From an uncultured Paracoccaceae bacterium (GTDB lineage Bacteria; Pseudomonadota; Alphaproteobacteria; Rhodobacterales; Rhodobacteraceae), in assembly GCA_947311485.1 (NCBI GenBank), contig CAMZLM010000186.1, positions 1-38,903 on the forward strand: a stretch of DNA of 38,903 bases, written 5' to 3'. How positions within the stretch are numbered: the stretch's first letter is position 1; the number at the start of each line of letters is the position of its first letter. The notes under the pieces were generated by a model that worked only from the letters and a program-made list of their open reading frames with translations, did no database searches and was not told the origin of the DNA. The translations under genes and the position numbers were made by a program. Below are positions 5,673 through 14,125 of the stretch, in pieces.

Positions 5673-6539
5673 ATGACAACGACAACACGTGGCTGGATCA
5701 ACGGTATGATCGGAGTCCTGATTTTTAGCGCATCGTTACCGGCCACACGGATGGCCGTTGCCGATTTTGACCCCCTGTTCCTGACATCCATACGCGCAAC
5801 AATCGCCGCGATTTTAGGAATGATAATGCTGGGCGGTTTTCACATTCCGCGCCCGGACCGCACAGAGTTGTTTTCCCTCGCCTTGGTCAGCATCGGCGTT
5901 GTCATCGGATTTCCCTTTCTAACCGCACTGGCCCTGCAGCACATTACGGCTGCTTATTCTATTGTCTTTATCGGACTGCTTCCGCTCAGCACCGCGTTCT
6001 TCGCCGTTTTGCGCGCCAGCGAAACCCCGCCCCCTGCTTTTTGGATATTTTCCTTGCTTGGCAGCTTTCTGGTGGCCGGATTTGCCTTGTCCGGCGGTGT
6101 CGAAACCTCTTTCCGGGGAAATCTGTATATGACCGCCGCCATTGTTGTGTGTGGGCTGGGGTATGCCGAAGGCGCAAAGCTTTCGCGAACACTGGGCGGA
6201 TGGCAAGTTATTTCCTGGGCGCTGGTTCTGGCGTTTCCTTTGATGGCCTGCCTAACCTACATCACAATGCCTGGCACCTTTGAAGGTATCCAACGGTCCG
6301 CTTGGGTCGGCCTTGGCTATGTATCCGTATTCAGCATGCTCATCGGGTTTGTCTTCTGGTATCGCGGTCTGGCGCAAGGAGGCATTGCTGCGGTTGGCCA
6401 ACTACAGCTTCTACAACCCTTTTTCGGCTTATTACTTACCGCAACCGTGTTGGGAGAAACCGTTAGCACCGCAATGATAGCCATTACAATCGCCGTTGTA
6501 TTATGCGTTGTCGCAGCCAAACATTTCGCCCGCCCATAA
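5673..6539 (+). CDS. EamA/DMT-family transporter (RhaT/YdcZ-like exporter or permease)
   Basis: A 288-residue protein of the drug/metabolite transporter superfamily, with about ten hydrophobic helices and two repeated EamA halves. The first half runs from GMIGVLIFSASLPATRMAV to about residue 135. The second starts near NLYMTAAIVVCGLGYAEGAKL and ends in a helix at the C terminus after LLQPFFGLLLTATVLGE, a segment typical of EamA proteins. The ATG at 5673 is preferred because AAGG lies about 8 bases upstream; the frame is open further upstream, but that part runs into the MocR gene on the other strand. It is divergent from the MocR-type regulator, which probably controls it. Substrate is unknown; amino acids or amines are common for MocR-paired EamA proteins. 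Confidence 0.9.
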   Translation: MTTTTRGWINGMIGVLIFSASLPATRMAVADFDPLFLTSIRATIAAILGMIMLGGFHIPRPDRTELFSLALVSIGVVIGFPFLTALALQHITAAYSIVFIGLLPLSTAFFAVLRASETPPPAFWIFSLLGSFLVAGFALSGGVETSFRGNLYMTAAIVVCGLGYAEGAKLSRTLGGWQVISWALVLAFPLMACLTYITMPGTFEGIQRSAWVGLGYVSVFSMLIGFVFWYRGLAQGGIAAVGQLQLLQPFFGLLLTATVLGETVSTAMIAITIAVVLCVVAAKHFARP

Positions 6540-6540
6540 G

Positions 6541-6617
6541 TGGTGACCCCGAGTGGATTCGAACCACTAACCTGCCCCTTAGGAGGGGGCTGCTCTATCC
6601 AGTTGAGCCACGGGGCC
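6541..6617 (-). tRNA. tRNA-Arg (anticodon CCT)
   Basis: Read on the minus strand it folds as a standard 77-base cloverleaf. The acceptor stem is GGCCCCG against CGGGGTC (one G-U pair), with discriminator A and an encoded CCA at 6541-6543. The anticodon stem GCCCC/GGGGC encloses loop CTCCTAA with CCT at positions 34-36. The T arm contains GGTTCGAATCC. It decodes AGG, a rare arginine codon in such genomes. The CCA end lies 1 base after the stop codon of the convergent EamA gene. Confidence 0.97.
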
Positions 6618-6776
6618 ACAGCAGACAAAAGCCATATTCTGCCGTGAGGTGCAAGTGTTCTATTTCCGACAGCTGTTTTTATACTGAATCGTGAATTTTC
6701 ATGGGTAATGCTTCTTTTCATTTCCGCTTCTGGGCGTTTTCGGCTATCGTTCAGATAAACAACGCGCCAAAATGAC

Positions 6777-7460
6777 ATGCAACGTAATGAACTCACCTTT
6801 CCGCCCAGCTCTTTGCTGGGGCGGATCAATCAGGCGAGCTGGGAACAGCTCTCCGATAAATGGACGGTAAACACTTACCGGCCCGGCCATTTTCTGATCT
6901 CTGCCGATGATGACGGGCTTGATGTTTTTTTCATTATTAACGGCACCGTCAAGGCCAGCATTTATACGGATGGTGGACGCGAGGTTTCCTTTCTTTCTTT
7001 GACGAATGGTGATTGTCTCGGCGAATTTTCCGCCATCGACGAAGCCCCCCGTTCCTGCGATGCCATTACCGAAACCGATTGCATCGTTGCACGCATTTCG
7101 GCCCAGAGCTTTCGGGATCTGCTCAAGGTCAACCCGGACATGAGCTTTGTTCTTCTTAGCTTGTTGGTTGGCCATTTGCGCCGGCTGGATAAACGCGTTG
7201 TGGATTTCAATTCCAAATCCGCAGACGTGCGTTTGCGGGAAAAACTGCTGGAGCTGGCCGAAACCTACAACAAGAATGACGAAGCCCTGATCGAAAAACC
7301 GCCAACCCAGATACAGTTGGCAGCGTTTGTATTTTCCAGCCGGGAATCGGTGGCACGTGAAATGGGCCGAATGCGCAAGGCCGGGGTTTTGGGGCGTAAA
7401 CGACGCGCTTTACATTTTCCTTCGGTAACCCGTCTGCGCAAATATATCGGCGAGCAATGA
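6777..7460 (+). CDS. Crp/Fnr-family transcription regulator with cyclic-nucleotide-binding domain
   Basis: A 227-residue, two-domain regulator. Residues about 12-130 form a cNMP-binding beta-roll (VFFIINGTVKASIYTDGGREVSF). Its phosphate-binding cassette, GEFSAIDEAPRS, carries Glu83, Arg92 and Ser93, which are the residues that contact cAMP in CRP. That favours a true cyclic nucleotide sensor over an Fnr-type sensor, and the N terminus has no Fnr cysteine set. A long dimer helix follows, then a helix-turn-helix (177-203, PTQIQLAAFVFSSRESVAREMGRM). The start is the ATG at 6777, and no strong ribosome site is visible. The 159-base region between the tRNA and this gene holds its promoter, but I could not identify clear boxes. 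Target genes are unknown. Confidence 0.92.
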   Translation: MQRNELTFPPSSLLGRINQASWEQLSDKWTVNTYRPGHFLISADDDGLDVFFIINGTVKASIYTDGGREVSFLSLTNGDCLGEFSAIDEAPRSCDAITETDCIVARISAQSFRDLLKVNPDMSFVLLSLLVGHLRRLDKRVVDFNSKSADVRLREKLLELAETYNKNDEALIEKPPTQIQLAAFVFSSRESVAREMGRMRKAGVLGRKRRALHFPSVTRLRKYIGEQ

Positions 7461-7513
7461 AGTGGCTTGCGCCTTACCCACCTCAAAGCTATCGAGCCTG
7501 AACTCGCCGCGTT

Positions 7514-8275
7514 TTAGGATTTACGCGTAAAAACCAAAGCATTTTCCTGCGACAGTTCCGGTTGGAAACCATACCCGTCTGTGTCAAAATCTTTTAGCTT
7601 ATCAATTGTTTCCACACGGTTTTGAATGATATATCGCGCCATGGATCCACGCGCCTTTTTGGCATAAAACCCGATCATTTTCAGGCCACCCTCACGCTCT
7701 TCCTTAAAAGCAACGTCAATGATGGGTGACTGCATGGTTTTGGCACTTACGGCCTTGAAATACTCATTCGAGGCCAGATTAACCACCGGTGCGCCACCCG
7801 ATGCCGCATCCAGAGCCTTGCCAATCCGGTCCCCCCAATAGGCATAAAGGTTTGAACCTGCATCATTTGCCAGACGGCTCCCCATTTCCAACCGATAGGG
7901 TTGAATCCGGTCCAAGGGTCGCAATGCCCCGTAAAGCCCTGACAAGACACGCAAATGATCCTGCGCATAGGCAAGGTCGTCTGTATCGAACGCGCTTGCG
8001 GACAAGCCGGTATAAGTGTCTCCGGCAAAGGCAAACATGGCCTGCTTGGAATTTCGCGCATCGGATTTTTCGGCAAAGGCCTGAAACCGCTCCCGATTCA
8101 GGATTGCAAGGTCTTCACTGATTTTCATCAGCTTACGCAGATCAGACACGCTTAACTGTTTCGCAATCCTTGCAAGTCGGTTTGCATCCTTTTGAAATTC
8201 AGGAAAACTTTCGCCCACAGCATCGGGCAAAGGGTCGAAATTCAGTTTTTTGGCTGGTGAAATAACAGCAAGCAT
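7514..8275 (-). CDS. yaaA: YaaA-family peroxide stress protein (UPF0246)
   Basis: A 253-residue member of the YaaA/DUF328 family, which in E. coli lowers intracellular free iron and limits oxidative DNA damage under hydrogen peroxide. The start MLAVISPAKKLNF matches the family's MLxxISPAKxL opening. Internal family segments include YTGLSASAFDTDDLAYAQDHL, LSGLYGALRPLDRIQPYRLEMG and NLASNEYFKAV. Two in-frame starts lie upstream (ATG at 8281, GTG at 8287). I prefer 8275 because GGGGA precedes it by about 6 bases and it fits the family start. It lies 60 bases after recQ on the same strand and may be cotranscribed with it, which would pair iron/peroxide control with DNA repair. Confidence 0.93.
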   Translation of the reverse strand: MLAVISPAKKLNFDPLPDAVGESFPEFQKDANRLARIAKQLSVSDLRKLMKISEDLAILNRERFQAFAEKSDARNSKQAMFAFAGDTYTGLSASAFDTDDLAYAQDHLRVLSGLYGALRPLDRIQPYRLEMGSRLANDAGSNLYAYWGDRIGKALDAASGGAPVVNLASNEYFKAVSAKTMQSPIIDVAFKEEREGGLKMIGFYAKKARGSMARYIIQNRVETIDKLKDFDTDGYGFQPELSQENALVFTRKS

Positions 8276-10531: not shown

Positions 10532-11407
10532 ATGAAAACCGATCGCTTCAAAAAGGCTATCCATCTGGCACAATACCTCCCGATTGCGGGGCTATTGGCC
10601 GTTGGGCGATTGCTGTCCTTTGATGCCCGTGGCCGGCTGAGCGCGGCGATTGTTGGCTGGGGCACGCGCTGGCTGCCGCCATTTCGCAAACGGATTGAAC
10701 GGGGACTGCGGCTTGTCTATCCCGACATGCCCAAAGCCGAGCGGAACCGGATTGCCCATGCGGTAGGCCGCAACACAGGGCGTACCCTGTCCGAAATCCT
10801 GCATAATGCCGAATTTGCGCAAAAACTGGACCGTTTCCATGCGGCAGGCCCGGGCTTGCAATCACTGGAACAGGCCAAAGCAGCGGGTAAAGGTGCCATC
10901 ATCGTTTCCGCCCATTTCGGCCAGTGGGAAGCCATCCGCCATGTGCTGAAATCCCGCGATATGGAAACCGGTGCCGTATATCGGGAAAACAACAATCCCT
11001 ATTACGAAAAACACTTTCTGAACGGCATTCGGCAAGGCGGTTCCCCGATTGTGGCCAAGGGACGCAAGGGCACGATGGATATGGTACGCCATGTGCGCAA
11101 AGGCGGGTTTTTCGCGATTTTGCCGGATCAATACGTGCATGGAGCCGCCAATCTGCCGCTATTGGGACATGTGGCCGGCACCACGCTTGGCCCCGCCGAA
11201 CTGGCGTTGAAATACGACTTGCCACTGGTGCCGGCCTTTGGGCTGCGGCGCGAAAACGGCACCGATATAGATGTGGAATTCGAAACGGAAATCCGCCACA
11301 GCACCGCCGAACAAATGATGGCCGAATTCAATGATCGGCTGAGCGCCCGCATCCGGCAAAACCCCGGTCAATGGTATTGGCTGCATCACCGCTGGAAGCG
11401 GTTCTAG
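10532..11407 (+). CDS. Lipid A biosynthesis lauroyl/late acyltransferase (LpxL/HtrB family)
   Basis: A 291-residue inner-membrane acyltransferase of the LpxL/LpxM family, which adds secondary acyl chains to Kdo-lipid A precursors. The catalytic HX4(D/E) motif is HFGQWE (His128, Glu133). Downstream family segments are the AVYRENNNPYYEK stretch, the FAILPDQYVHGAA block that positions the acyl substrate, and a closing QWYWLHHRWKRF. A hydrophobic stretch near residues 12-30 fits membrane association. The ATG at 10532 gives the normal family length, although the frame stays open far upstream inside recQ's complementary strand. It is followed 9 bases later by waaA, so acylation and Kdo addition are in one operon. 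LpxL and LpxM cannot be told apart here. Confidence 0.9.
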   Translation: MKTDRFKKAIHLAQYLPIAGLLAVGRLLSFDARGRLSAAIVGWGTRWLPPFRKRIERGLRLVYPDMPKAERNRIAHAVGRNTGRTLSEILHNAEFAQKLDRFHAAGPGLQSLEQAKAAGKGAIIVSAHFGQWEAIRHVLKSRDMETGAVYRENNNPYYEKHFLNGIRQGGSPIVAKGRKGTMDMVRHVRKGGFFAILPDQYVHGAANLPLLGHVAGTTLGPAELALKYDLPLVPAFGLRRENGTDIDVEFETEIRHSTAEQMMAEFNDRLSARIRQNPGQWYWLHHRWKRF

Positions 11408-11416
11408 GGGGCTGGA

Positions 11417-12667
11417 ATGGTAATTTACCGGATCATAACCCTGATTGCCGCCCCGCTGATCTGGCTGATGCTGCTGGGGCGTTGGTTGTTCGGGGCGGAC
11501 AGTTTCAGCCATTTCAAAAACCGCCTTGGGTTTGCCACTGCGCAGGCTGGAGGACCGGTGATCTGGCTGCATGCGGCCAGCGTGGGCGAACTTCAATCCG
11601 CCAGACAGCTCTTGGCCTATCTGCATCGGCAATTTCCCCACTACCGGTTGCTGGTTACAGCCAACAATCCAACCGCACTGACCTTGGCGCAGGACTGGCC
11701 GGGGATGATTTTGCAAGCGGCCCCGCTGGATACTGCCGGTGCTTTGCGGCGATTTCTGAAACATTGGAAAATATCGGCCTATATCAACATCGAAGGCGAG
11801 CTTTGGCCGAACCGGCTGGCGCTGTTGGCACGGCGCGGGGTGCCCGTGGTGCTGGTGAATGCGCGGTTGTCCAAAACGAGTGCCAAACGGTTTGGCTGGT
11901 TTGGTATCGGGCGCAGGATGCTGACCGGCGTACAGGTGGTTTTTGCACAGGATACAGCCTCGGCCGAGCGGTTTCAGAACCTGACACAAGCGCCGATAGA
12001 GGTGATCCAGAACCTGAAATCGCTGGCGGCGGAACAGATTGAAGGCCTTGAAGATACAGACCTCAACCAATTGCTCCCAAGAGATAAAACAATTCTGGCA
12101 GCCTCGACCCACAAGGGCGAAGAGGCTTGGGTTCTGGCCGCTTTTGCCAAGGTTCTGAAACAGGTGCCAGATGCAAAATTGATACTGGCCCCACGCCACC
12201 CCAAGCGGGGCAAAGAGGTTGCAAGAATTATCAAGAATGCCAATTTATCGTTTAAACAACGTGGGTTAAACGAAGAGTATCAAGCTGATGTGCCTGTATA
12301 TCTGGCCGATACACTGGGCGAAATGGGGGTGTTCTATGCTTTGGCGGGGATTACCTTTGTCGGCGGATCGCTGCTGAACAAGGGCGGGCATACGCCATAT
12401 GAGCCGGCGCTTTATGGGTCGGCGATTGTTACCGGCCCTTATGTTGATAATTTTTCACGCGAATACAGCATGTTATCAGAAAACAATGCCTGTCTAACCG
12501 TTCGAAATGTCGATGAACTGACCGCGGCCTTTACCACCCTTCTGGATGAAACGACACGCTTGCAAATGGCGCATCAGGCGCAGAAGGTGTTGGGGCAGAA
12601 TACCGACACAACGACCTTGTTTTTGCGGCTGATTGCGCCTTTGGATCTGGAGCGGTTGGATGAATAG
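11417..12667 (+). CDS. waaA: 3-deoxy-D-manno-octulosonic acid (Kdo) transferase
   Basis: Transfers Kdo from CMP-Kdo onto the lipid A precursor, the first step of the LPS inner core. It is a 416-residue GT30 protein of GT-B fold, the standard length. An N-terminal membrane anchor (about residues 3-22) is followed by FKNRLGF and WLHAASVGELQS, with Glu58 at the position of the catalytic base. The C-terminal Rossmann half has LAASTHKGEE, LILAPRHPKR, VYLADTLGEMGVFYALAGITFVGGSL and GGHTPYEPALYG, typical of WaaA. It follows the acyltransferase by 9 bases and overlaps the GT29-like gene by 8 bases, so translation of all three is probably coupled. Whether it adds one or two Kdo units cannot be read from sequence. 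Confidence 0.95.
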   Translation: MVIYRIITLIAAPLIWLMLLGRWLFGADSFSHFKNRLGFATAQAGGPVIWLHAASVGELQSARQLLAYLHRQFPHYRLLVTANNPTALTLAQDWPGMILQAAPLDTAGALRRFLKHWKISAYINIEGELWPNRLALLARRGVPVVLVNARLSKTSAKRFGWFGIGRRMLTGVQVVFAQDTASAERFQNLTQAPIEVIQNLKSLAAEQIEGLEDTDLNQLLPRDKTILAASTHKGEEAWVLAAFAKVLKQVPDAKLILAPRHPKRGKEVARIIKNANLSFKQRGLNEEYQADVPVYLADTLGEMGVFYALAGITFVGGSLLNKGGHTPYEPALYGSAIVTGPYVDNFSREYSMLSENNACLTVRNVDELTAAFTTLLDETTRLQMAHQAQKVLGQNTDTTTLFLRLIAPLDLERLDE

Positions 12668-13277
12668 CATATCATTTACCCTGCGCAAATGGTTGCAAGG
12701 AGAGGGTTTTTTACAATCCCTTTCCGCAACCCCCACGCAGTTGCAGATTGATCTGCAAGGCAAGAGCATCGCCATCGTCGGCAATGCCCGTTCCCTGAGT
12801 GCGCGGGGATTTGGGTCGGCGATTGATGCCGCAGATATTGTGATCCGCATGCATGCAGCCCCTTTGGTGACGTCCCTTTCCCATGGCAGCAAGACGGACT
12901 GGCTCGCGCTGGCGATGCCGGTACCGGAAAAAACCATCTGCGATAGGTCGCCTAAACGATTGTTATGGATGGCAAAAAAGCGCAAACGTCTACGGTGGCG
13001 TTTTGCCCGTCGCAAAGGTTTTTATCTGCATCCCGTACCCGAATGGGAACGGATGCAAGATACGCTGGGGGCACCGCCGACCACGGGGGTTATGTTGATA
13101 GATCTGGTGGCGCGATCAAACGCCGGCAAGATCGACCTCTATGGCTTTGATTTCTTTGCCAGCCTGTCGCTTTCGGGGCGGCGGCGTGCCGATCAGGTGC
13201 CGCATAATTTTGCTGCGGAAAAAGCGTTTGTCGAAACCCTGATCAGCAACGACAAACGCGTGATGCTCAATCTTTAA
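12660..13277 (+). CDS. GT29-like (sialyltransferase-motif) glycosyltransferase
   Basis: A 205-residue protein starting at the ATG at 12660, inside the last codons of waaA. It shows the sialylmotifs of family GT29 in order. Motif L is residues 36-67, starting SIAIVGNARSL and ending DIVIRMHAAP. Motif S is residues about 139-165, PPTTGVMLIDLVA then IDLYGFDFF. A VS-like HX4E follows (His182, Glu187 in PHNFAAEKAF). The paired cysteines that link motifs L and S in animal enzymes are absent, as expected for a cytoplasmic protein. It is shorter than eukaryotic members, and I see no transmembrane anchor. GT29 enzymes use CMP-sialic acid; the CMP-sugar made for the gene next door is CMP-Kdo, a related ulosonic acid. 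A role in inner-core LPS is inferred; the actual donor is unknown. Confidence 0.75.
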   Translation: MNSISFTLRKWLQGEGFLQSLSATPTQLQIDLQGKSIAIVGNARSLSARGFGSAIDAADIVIRMHAAPLVTSLSHGSKTDWLALAMPVPEKTICDRSPKRLLWMAKKRKRLRWRFARRKGFYLHPVPEWERMQDTLGAPPTTGVMLIDLVARSNAGKIDLYGFDFFASLSLSGRRRADQVPHNFAAEKAFVETLISNDKRVMLNL

Positions 13278-14125
13278 ATACCGGTTTTGCGGCTTTCTTC
13301 GATATAGATTTCCAGCAGGCGTTTGGCGATCGGCCCGGGGGTGCCATCACCGATTTGCGCGTTGTCGATTTCGACAACCGGCTGCACGAATGTGGTGGCC
13401 GAGGTGATAAACGCCTCATCCGCATTGCGGGCTTCTTCTTCGGTAAAGGAACGTTCCACCACTTGCAGCTGGGCTTCTTTTGCCAGACGCAGAACCGAAT
13501 TGCGGGTGATGCCGTGCAAAATGTCATTGGACAATTCGCGGGTGATGATCTGGCCATCCTTGACAATATAGGCGTTGTTGGAGGAGCCTTCGGTAATCTT
13601 GCCATCCTCGACCAACCACGCATCATGTTTGCCGGCAGCCTTGGCCATCATTTTGCACATGCTGGGATAGAGCAACTGCACGGTTTTGATATCACGGCGG
13701 TGCCAGCGGAGGTCGTCTGCAAAAATAACCTTGATACCGGTTTTGGAGGCTGGCGTATCAATCAGGCCTGCTTCTTGAGTGAACAAAACCAAGGTGGGTT
13801 CGGCATCCTTGGGGTAAACGAAATCGCGGTCCGCGGCCCCCCGGGTGATTTGCCAATAGACACGACCGGATTCAATATTGTTCAACCGAACCAGTTCGCG
13901 ATTGATTTCCAGCAAATCGTCGTAATCCTTTGGCTTGCCCATTTCCAGTTCGTTTAACGAACGTTCCAACCGCGCCAGATGGCCATCAAATTCCAGCAGC
14001 TTGCCGTCCAGCACGGAAACAACTTCGTAAACGCCATCCGCCATCAGAAATCCCCGATCAAAGATCGAAATCTTGGCGTCTTCTTCGGGCAAATACTGCC
14101 CATTCAAAAATACGGTGCGGCTCAT
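13274..14125 (-). CDS. dat: D-amino acid transaminase (class IV aminotransferase)
   Basis: A 283-residue fold-type IV PLP enzyme. The opening FLNGQYLPEEDAKISIFDRGFLMADGVYEV matches D-amino acid transaminases. Lys147 in RRDIKTVQLL is the expected Schiff-base lysine (Lys145 in the Bacillus enzyme), and TEGSSNNAYIV and HGITRNSVL are the usual cofactor-binding segments. The reaction interconverts D-amino acids and 2-oxo acids, with D-glutamate or D-alanine central. Branched-chain aminotransferase and aminodeoxychorismate lyase are related, but the N terminus and length favour D-AAT. It follows dgcA by 4 bases on the same strand. With dgcN and dgcA it forms a cluster for handling D-glutamate and other D-amino acids, such as those from peptidoglycan. 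Its stop overlaps that of the convergent GT29-like gene. Confidence 0.9.
   Translation of the reverse strand: MSRTVFLNGQYLPEEDAKISIFDRGFLMADGVYEVVSVLDGKLLEFDGHLARLERSLNELEMGKPKDYDDLLEINRELVRLNNIESGRVYWQITRGAADRDFVYPKDAEPTLVLFTQEAGLIDTPASKTGIKVIFADDLRWHRRDIKTVQLLYPSMCKMMAKAAGKHDAWLVEDGKITEGSSNNAYIVKDGQIITRELSNDILHGITRNSVLRLAKEAQLQVVERSFTEEEARNADEAFITSATTFVQPVVEIDNAQIGDGTPGPIAKRLLEIYIEESRKTGI

What the first reader, a model, noticed from the sequence alone, without database searches (positions are those of the whole stretch)
12660..13277. GT29 sialyltransferase-like protein fused into the waaA operon: possible CMP-Kdo transferase
Seen: motifs L, S and HX4E of GT29 in the right order, in a 205-residue protein overlapping waaA by 8 bases. 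Known: GT29 enzymes use CMP-sialic acid; plant GT29-like proteins have been linked to Kdo-containing pectin; WaaA is GT30. Inference: the donor may be CMP-Kdo, adding a further Kdo or related ulosonic acid to the inner core. A bacterial GT29 acting on LPS core would be notable. No CMP-sialic acid synthesis gene is in the window.
Basis: partly seen in the sequence, partly recalled or inferred. Interest (0 to 1): 0.8.

Follow-up and report, generated by a model that had tools for sequence, protein, structure and literature searches.

The report
Bacterial sialyltransferase relative, probably Kdo-adding
A marine bacterium carries a small relative of the animal enzymes that add sialic acid, placed in an operon with the enzyme that starts the endotoxin sugar core; no route to sialic acid was found in its genome, so the protein probably adds the related sugar Kdo instead, which would be a new use of this enzyme family in bacteria.

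Summary
ORF 12660-13277 encodes 205 aa that pass Pfam's GT29 cut-off, model like sialyltransferases and overlap waaA by 8 bases. It is under purifying selection. It belongs to a Rhodobacteraceae "clade A", distinct from "clade B", whose genes sit in nonulosonate (neuB) clusters.

No NeuB was found in 22 of 23 sampled clade A genomes, the window's included. In 21 of 23 the only strong cytidylyltransferase match is KdsB-like. The window WaaA is the only one of the genome's two GT30s that keeps the catalytic-Glu motif. In 7 of 80 named relatives a KpsF/KdsD-family gene directly follows GT29. CMP-Kdo is the likeliest donor, inner-core Kdo the likeliest acceptor. Plant RCKT1 and the Loktanella rosea core are precedents.

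Against: a close relative (L132) has neuBAC beside GT29; a GT4, not waaA, is the usual neighbour (49 of 80); motif III is not recognisable. Donor and acceptor are inferred, not shown. Bacterial GT29s were reported in 2018: a new variant, not a new kind.

The parts
12660..13277 (+). GT29-family protein, 205 aa (P0001), the finding
   Evidence: PF00777 37 bits; AF2 + Foldseek to sialyltransferases; dN/dS ~0.11 vs L130
12759..12899 (+). sialylmotif L region (residues 34-80: G41 N42, R63-M-H65; H65 replaces the Asn found in 48 of 59 rows)
13071..13157 (+). sialylmotif S region (residues 138-166, PTTG...LYGFDFF)
13203..13220 (+). motif VS H182-x4-E187, putative catalytic base
   Evidence: same in 59 of 59 rows; catalytic role recalled from mammalian GT29
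11417..12667 (+). waaA, GT30 Kdo transferase, 416 aa, with H-A-A-S-V-G-E58; of the genome's two GT30 matches the only one that keeps this motif
   Evidence: PF04413 5.6e-47, 2xci 1.4e-26, paralogue comparison
10532..11407 (+). LpxL-like lipid A acyltransferase, 291 aa, upstream gene of the operon
   Evidence: PF03279 1.8e-38 on the last 255 aa; start
13274..14125 (-). class IV aminotransferase, convergent; end of the operon
   Evidence: PF01063 5.5e-47

Best explanation
The gene encodes a GT29-fold, inverting transferase that uses CMP-beta-Kdo to add an alpha-linked Kdo (or Kdo-derived ulosonic acid) to the Kdo that WaaA has put on the lipid A precursor. The overlap with waaA suggests co-translation, so that a short ulosonic-acid core is built in sequence. 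Shown here: GT29 family and predicted fold, the gene order, no NeuB match in the genome, KdsB and a KpsF/KdsD-family gene present, purifying selection. Inferred: CMP-Kdo as donor, inner-core Kdo as acceptor, inversion and alpha linkage (from GT29 in general), cytoplasmic location (no membrane prediction was run), order of steps.
For: PF00777 and fold. No NeuB in own genome. Clade A: NeuB in 1 of 23 genomes, against 52 of 198 in the family sample. A strong near-full-length PF02348 match in 23 of 23; a second clear one in 2 of 23 (G024, G165). The own-genome gene is KdsB by NCBIfam: 338 bits, cut-off 234; the others were not named. The genome's other GT30 lacks the Glu motif. LpxL-WaaA-GT29 order in 8 of 80 named loci, WaaA directly upstream in 9. 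A KpsF/KdsD-family gene directly downstream in 7 of 80; the L134 copy scores 287.5 bits for KpsF/GutQ, cut-off 203.7. Clade B: 5 of 5 tree-confirmed loci hold neuB and two GT30s. Precedents: Arabidopsis RCKT1 (PMC11288761 passages); Loktanella rosea core made only of Kdo and Neu (PMC3210612 passages).
Against: L132, 69% identical, has neuB-, neuA- and neuC-like genes between GT29 and the KdsD-family gene, so a close relative could use a nonulosonate. L148 and L155 have a neuB-family gene about 4.5 kb away; L148's is PseI, L155's was not named. A GT4 is the direct upstream neighbour in 49 of 80 loci and lies within 2.5 kb in 53. Four genomes with distant GT29s (G006, G007, G094, G153) also lack NeuB, so its absence is not special to clade A. 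The NeuB deficit (Fisher p 0.010) is not corrected for phylogeny. Ten clade A genomes have weaker partial PF02348 matches (E 2e-7 or worse) in long frames that I take for GlmU- or MobA-like proteins without having searched them. G120, same genus, has no GT29. The window genome is 96.7% complete, so a missed neuB is possible. The KdsD equivalog model is not met (279 bits of 505). Motif III is not recognisable. TM-scores are moderate, 0.50-0.62.
Confidence: 0.6

Rival explanations
1. It is a true sialyl- or nonulosonyltransferase that uses CMP-Neu5Ac, CMP-Leg or CMP-Pse made from a scavenged or undetected nonulosonic acid, and caps the inner-core Kdo as in Loktanella rosea.
For: Family name and fold; clade B sits in neuB clusters; L132 has neuBAC-like genes next door; G024 has both GT29 and neuB, on different contigs; Loktanella rosea core carries Neu on Kdo; Neu5Ac is reported in Rhodobacter capsulatus LPS (PMC9631793 passages).
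Against: No NeuB and no second strong cytidylyltransferase match in own genome; NeuB absent in 22 of 23 clade A genomes. Sialic acid uptake genes were not searched.
Confidence: 0.17
2. It is a GT29-fold enzyme with a non-CMP donor (such as UDP-Gal or UDP-GlcA) decorating the core; the changed motif III region reflects a donor change.
For: Plant GALT29A is listed with GT29 and galactosyltransferase in 8 papers (search listing only; its UDP-Gal activity is recalled). Clade A has no recognisable motif III. A UDP-glucose dehydrogenase-like gene lies upstream in 4 of 80 loci (family named on L081).
Against: Motif L and S residues that in solved enzymes hold CMP and the carboxylate (recalled) are largely invariant, the Asn-to-His change apart; lipid A and Kdo genes are the partners in the window's own subclade.
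Confidence: 0.12
3. It adds Kdo, but not to the LPS inner core: for example to a capsule or glycolipid acceptor made by the GT4 that accompanies many clade A copies.
For: GT4 directly upstream in 49 of 80 loci; a PS_pyruv_trans-family gene between WaaA and GT29 in 4 loci.
Against: In the window and its nearest relatives the partners are LpxL, WaaA and, in 7 loci, a KdsD-family gene; an LpxL-like gene also sits directly upstream in 3 GT4-linked loci (L144, L167, L196).
Confidence: 0.11

Closest known systems
CAZy GT29 mammalian sialyltransferases (ST8SiaIII 5bo8, ST3Gal1 2wnb, ST6GalNAc2 6apl)
   Same: Pfam PF00777, motifs L, S and H-x4-E, sialyltransferase fold
   Different: 205 aa; 15-20% identity and TM-scores of 0.5-0.6 in Foldseek; one Cys only, so no motif L-S disulfide; motif III not recognisable; no CMP-sialic acid source found in the genome
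Bacterial GT29 sequences of Petit et al. 2018 (PMC5811610, passages read)
   Same: Mostly alphaproteobacterial GT29-like proteins, Loktanella named; the authors remark that an LPS core with Kdo and Neu is known there
   Different: The passages treat them as sialyltransferase-like and report motif III as retrieved in bacteria; I saw no waaA/kdsD linkage, NeuB absence or Kdo donor for the bacterial ones in the passages
Arabidopsis RCKT1/MGP2, GT29 (PMC11288761, passages read)
   Same: GT29 protein in an organism with little or no sialic acid, with genetic evidence for CMP-Kdo as donor
   Different: Golgi enzyme, acceptor is pectin RG-II; activity not confirmed in vitro
GT30 WaaA (Kdo transferase)
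   Same: Probable shared donor CMP-Kdo and shared pathway
   Different: Different fold: no GT30 among the 50 Foldseek matches listed of 974; WaaA is the neighbouring gene

Membership tests
GT29 (CAZy/Pfam PF00777) | Match over the curated Pfam cut-off | tested here: met
   37 bits vs 23; 59 of 59 rows of A3 match at E<=1e-3
GT29 (CAZy/Pfam PF00777) | Sialylmotifs L and S | tested here: met
   but the motif L Asn is His65 here and in 11 of 59 rows
GT29 (CAZy/Pfam PF00777) | Sialylmotif III | tested here: inconclusive
   By alignment S-L-S-L-S/T-G in clade A, T-Y-Y-N in clade B; the loop 167-174 has pLDDT < 50 and no structural superposition was made. PMC5811610 passages report III in bacterial GT29s, and its absence in two of three Arabidopsis ones
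GT29 (CAZy/Pfam PF00777) | Motif VS, H-x4-E | tested here: met
   H182 and E187 in 59 of 59 rows
GT29 (CAZy/Pfam PF00777) | Sialyltransferase (GT-A-like variant) fold | tested here: met
   25 of 25 Foldseek matches at E<=1e-3 are sialyltransferases, TM 0.50-0.62 over the query
Sialyltransferase by activity | CMP-sialic (nonulosonic) acid supply in the cell | tested here: not met
   No NeuB, no second strong cytidylyltransferase match in a 96.7% complete genome; uptake genes not searched
Sialyltransferase by activity | Transfers sialic acid from CMP-Neu5Ac | not testable with these tools
   Needs enzyme assay
CMP-Kdo transferase by activity | CMP-Kdo supply in the cell | tested here: met
   KdsB 338 bits over cut-off, KpsF/GutQ family 285 bits over cut-off; KdsA and KdsC not searched
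CMP-Kdo transferase by activity | Transfers Kdo | not testable with these tools
   Needs enzyme assay or LPS analysis

The most novel reading that the evidence does not exclude
Rhodobacteraceae build an inner core made only of ulosonic acids with a two-enzyme relay: a GT30 sets the first Kdo, and a GT29 of the sialyltransferase superfamily adds the next ulosonic acid. The donor follows the genome: nonulosonate where neuB is present (clade B), Kdo where it is absent (clade A). Clade A would be the first bacterial Kdo transferases of the GT29 family, and the Asn-to-His change in motif L would mark the WaaA-coupled branch.
Probability: 0.45. Interest if true: 0.78.

Novelty: new variant of a known kind. 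Interest (0 to 1): 0.6.

Why it matters
It would tie a sialyltransferase-family enzyme to endotoxin core assembly in bacteria for which no route to sialic acid was found. It would also give a bacterial counterpart to the plant GT29 Kdo transferase, and make testable how the GT29 family moved between Kdo and sialic acid. The bacterial protein is small (205 aa) and may be easier to express than plant RCKT1, whose expression in E. coli failed and whose activity awaits confirmation (PMC11288761 and PMC12168206 passages). An orthologue occurs in Paracoccus denitrificans (L156, 53% identity).

Tried and rejected
Fold-level GT30 relative: rejected, no GT30 among the 50 Foldseek matches listed of 974. 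GT42 membership: CstII matches, but weaker than GT29. Pseudogene or chance ORF: rejected by dN/dS and by 59 of 59 family matches. Viral origin: one IMG/VR scan gave two weak relatives, 25% and a 40% partial. NCBIfam on the protein: no match. Structural second look with pdb_via: library not available. Statistics: the Fisher tests treat related genomes as independent; the value (motif L His against direct waaA linkage, L138 left out as untestable) is in effect one evolutionary event and I give it no weight. Literature: GT29 with Rhodobacteraceae gave 0 papers. GT29 + Kdo + sialyltransferase-like + bacteria (6 papers), GT29 + CMP-Kdo + bacterial, Kdo transferase + GT30 + GT73 + lipopolysaccharide and sialyltransferase + Kdo transferase + waaA + Rhodobacterales gave none whose listing describes a bacterial GT29 Kdo transferase; only the held open library was searched. 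Searches for Rhodobacter LPS and Paracoccus LPS core gave little. A passage search of a 2026 Kdo-transferase paper (PMC12887879) showed no GT29 Kdo transferase.

Rows dropped: A3 held P0001 plus 58 of the 80 named loci, chosen without inspecting the other 22. The tree left out L095 and G117's GT29; rows L093 and L094 are long and unsure; L094 was cut to its first 200 aa. L084 (39% identical) was labelled clade A but falls on the clade B side of the midpoint. The unnamed (G) and named (L130-L209) samples overlap (several contig lengths coincide), so their counts are not independent. The 80 named loci are the best 80 of 230. LpxL was scanned as its last 255 aa. Twenty of 35 weak GT30 matches outside the own genome were fetched for the motif check.

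Full report
What is there. The ORF starts with ATG at 12660 and ends with TAA at 13277, 205 codons, overlapping the waaA stop (12665-12667) by 8 bases, with GGAG upstream of the ATG. The gene order is lpxL-like (10532-11407), waaA (11417-12667), GT29 (12660-13277); a class IV aminotransferase converges from the other strand and overlaps by 4 bases. It is the only GT29 match in the genome.

Is it really GT29? Pfam PF00777 scores 37 bits against a cut-off of 23; 59 of 59 aligned clade A proteins match too. An AlphaFold2 model from 59 sequences has mean pLDDT 89.6 and pTM 0.87. The 25 PDB matches at E<=1e-3 are all sialyltransferases: ST8SiaIII, ST3Gal1 and ST6GalNAc2 first, then the GT42 enzyme CstII; TM-scores over the query are moderate (0.50-0.62), and no GT30 is among the 50 listed of 974. 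A profile finds ST3Gal1 at 5.3e-7. G41, N42, T142, G143, H182 and E187 are the same in 59 rows. Sialylmotif III is not recognisable by alignment: clade A has S-L-S-L-S/T-G where clade B has T-Y-Y-N, and this loop (167-174) is the poorly predicted part, so its status is open; PMC5811610 reports motif III in bacterial GT29s (passages). dN/dS against L130 is 0.104/0.977, so the gene is maintained.

Distribution. In a sample of 198 genomes of the family, 32 match PF00777 and 34 match the protein itself. Across the class, 2 of 385 match, one being the window genome. In the named genome collection 230 relatives were found and the best 80 kept: Amylibacter, Neptunicoccus, Paracoccus, Thioclava, Defluviimonas and others. 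A tree of 42 rows separates clade A from clade B with support 99/97; one row labelled A (L084) falls on the B side of the midpoint. The 34 genomes divide into 23 with clade A, 7 with B-like proteins (5 in the tree's group B, plus G117 and G175, whose neuB clusters lie away from their GT29), and 4 with distant ones (G006, G007, G094, G153).

Donor evidence. NeuB (PF03102) is absent from the window genome (96.7% complete). Among the GT29-bearing genomes NeuB is present in 1 of 23 clade A genomes (G024, on another contig), 7 of 7 B-like ones and 0 of 4 distant ones; the base rate in the family sample is 52 of 198. Fisher p for clade A against the rest is 0.010, without phylogenetic correction. 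All 23 clade A genomes have a strong near-full-length PF02348 match; only G024 (beside its neuB) and G165 (a gene in a glycosyltransferase cluster) have a second clear one, and ten have weaker partial matches (E 2e-7 or worse) that I take for GlmU- or MobA-like proteins, unsearched. The own-genome gene is KdsB by NCBIfam; the others were not named. A KpsF/GutQ-family gene, taken as KdsD, is present elsewhere in the genome. KdsA, KdsC and sialic acid uptake genes were not searched.

Operon evidence. Among the 80 named loci WaaA lies within the flank in 13: directly upstream in nine (L130-L137, L142), and with a pyruvyltransferase-family gene between in four (L151, L192, L197, L209). In the unnamed sample WaaA is near 5 of 24 further clade A genes. 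A KpsF/KdsD-family gene follows GT29 directly in seven (L133-L138, L142), and in L132 after neuB-, neuA- and neuC-like genes; the L134 copy passes the KpsF/GutQ model but not the KdsD equivalog model (279 of 505 bits). The window itself has no such gene here. A GT4 is the direct upstream neighbour in 49 of 80 and lies within 2.5 kb in 53. In the five tree-confirmed clade B loci, GT29 lies with neuB-, neuC- and neuA-like genes and two waaA genes. In the window's subclade (P0001, L130-L138, L142; 11 of 59 rows) the Asn of motif L's R-x-N is His; L138's contig starts too close to GT29 to test its upstream gene.

WaaA. The genome has two GT30 matches. The window copy keeps H-A-A-S-V-G-E58; the second (contig C52, beside a gene that reads like lpxK, recalled, not searched) is 28% identical and reads W-L-H-T-A-D-M-A-G there. 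21 of 23 clade A genomes have two GT30 matches, G016 and G077 one. Twenty of the 35 other weak GT30 matches were fetched and all 20 lack the G-E of this motif; the 38 strong rows aligned (one gene listed twice) keep it. The catalytic role of the Glu is recalled from work on Aquifex WaaA (2xci, matched). So the window waaA is probably the working Kdo transferase, and GT29 is probably co-translated with it.

Mechanism proposed. WaaA sets Kdo on the lipid A precursor; GT29 adds a further alpha-ulosonic acid from CMP-beta-Kdo by inversion, with H182 as base. In Loktanella rosea, a relative (placement recalled), the core is alpha-Neu-(2->8)[alpha-Kdo-(2->4)]-alpha-Kdo, made only of ulosonic acids (PMC3210612, passages); clade B would fit the Neu step there, and clade A would do the like with Kdo. 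Whether L. rosea has a GT29 was not tested. Arabidopsis RCKT1, also GT29, is needed for Kdo on RG-II (PMC11288761, passages). Donor, acceptor and linkage are inferred.

Against it. L132, 69% identical and in the same operon type, has neuBAC-like genes next to GT29, so nonulosonate use is possible in a near relative. G120, same genus, has no GT29 but a neuB-neuC-waaA-neuA-like cluster. Most clade A copies among the 80 are not beside waaA. A non-CMP donor is claimed for plant GALT29A (listing; activity recalled). NeuB absence also holds for the 4 distant GT29 genomes.

Novelty. Bacterial GT29s, mostly alphaproteobacterial, were reported in 2018, with a remark on Kdo and Neu in the LPS core (PMC5811610, passages). 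What seems new is the clade without neuB, its coupling to waaA and a KdsD-family gene, and the changed motif III region. Literature searches showed no bacterial GT29 Kdo transferase in the held library's listings.

Noticed in passing
L097:841-2226 (own genome, contig C52) and L243-L262: A divergent GT30 (WaaA-like) paralogue in Rhodobacteraceae has lost the S-x-G-E catalytic motif: the own copy and 20 of 20 fetched lack the G-E. Its role is unknown.
   Followed up: partly
L239 (G120, same genus), L085, L086, L087, L089, L090: GT30 (waaA) genes are embedded in neuB-neuC-neuA-like clusters: one copy in G120, two in tandem in the five clade B loci. This fits an inner core built of Kdo and a nonulosonic acid.
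   Followed up: partly
L132:8402-12372: neuB-, neuA- and neuC-like genes sit between the GT29 operon and the KdsD-family gene in a close relative, which looks like an insertion into the operon.
   Followed up: partly
L265:3602-4453 (G165): A second cytidylyltransferase in a glycosyltransferase cluster of a genome without a NeuB match; its CMP-sugar is unknown.
   Followed up: partly
L094 (G153), 6343-7761 minus: A GT29-like domain appears joined to a longer C-terminal region in one open frame; a long branch in the tree.
   Followed up: no
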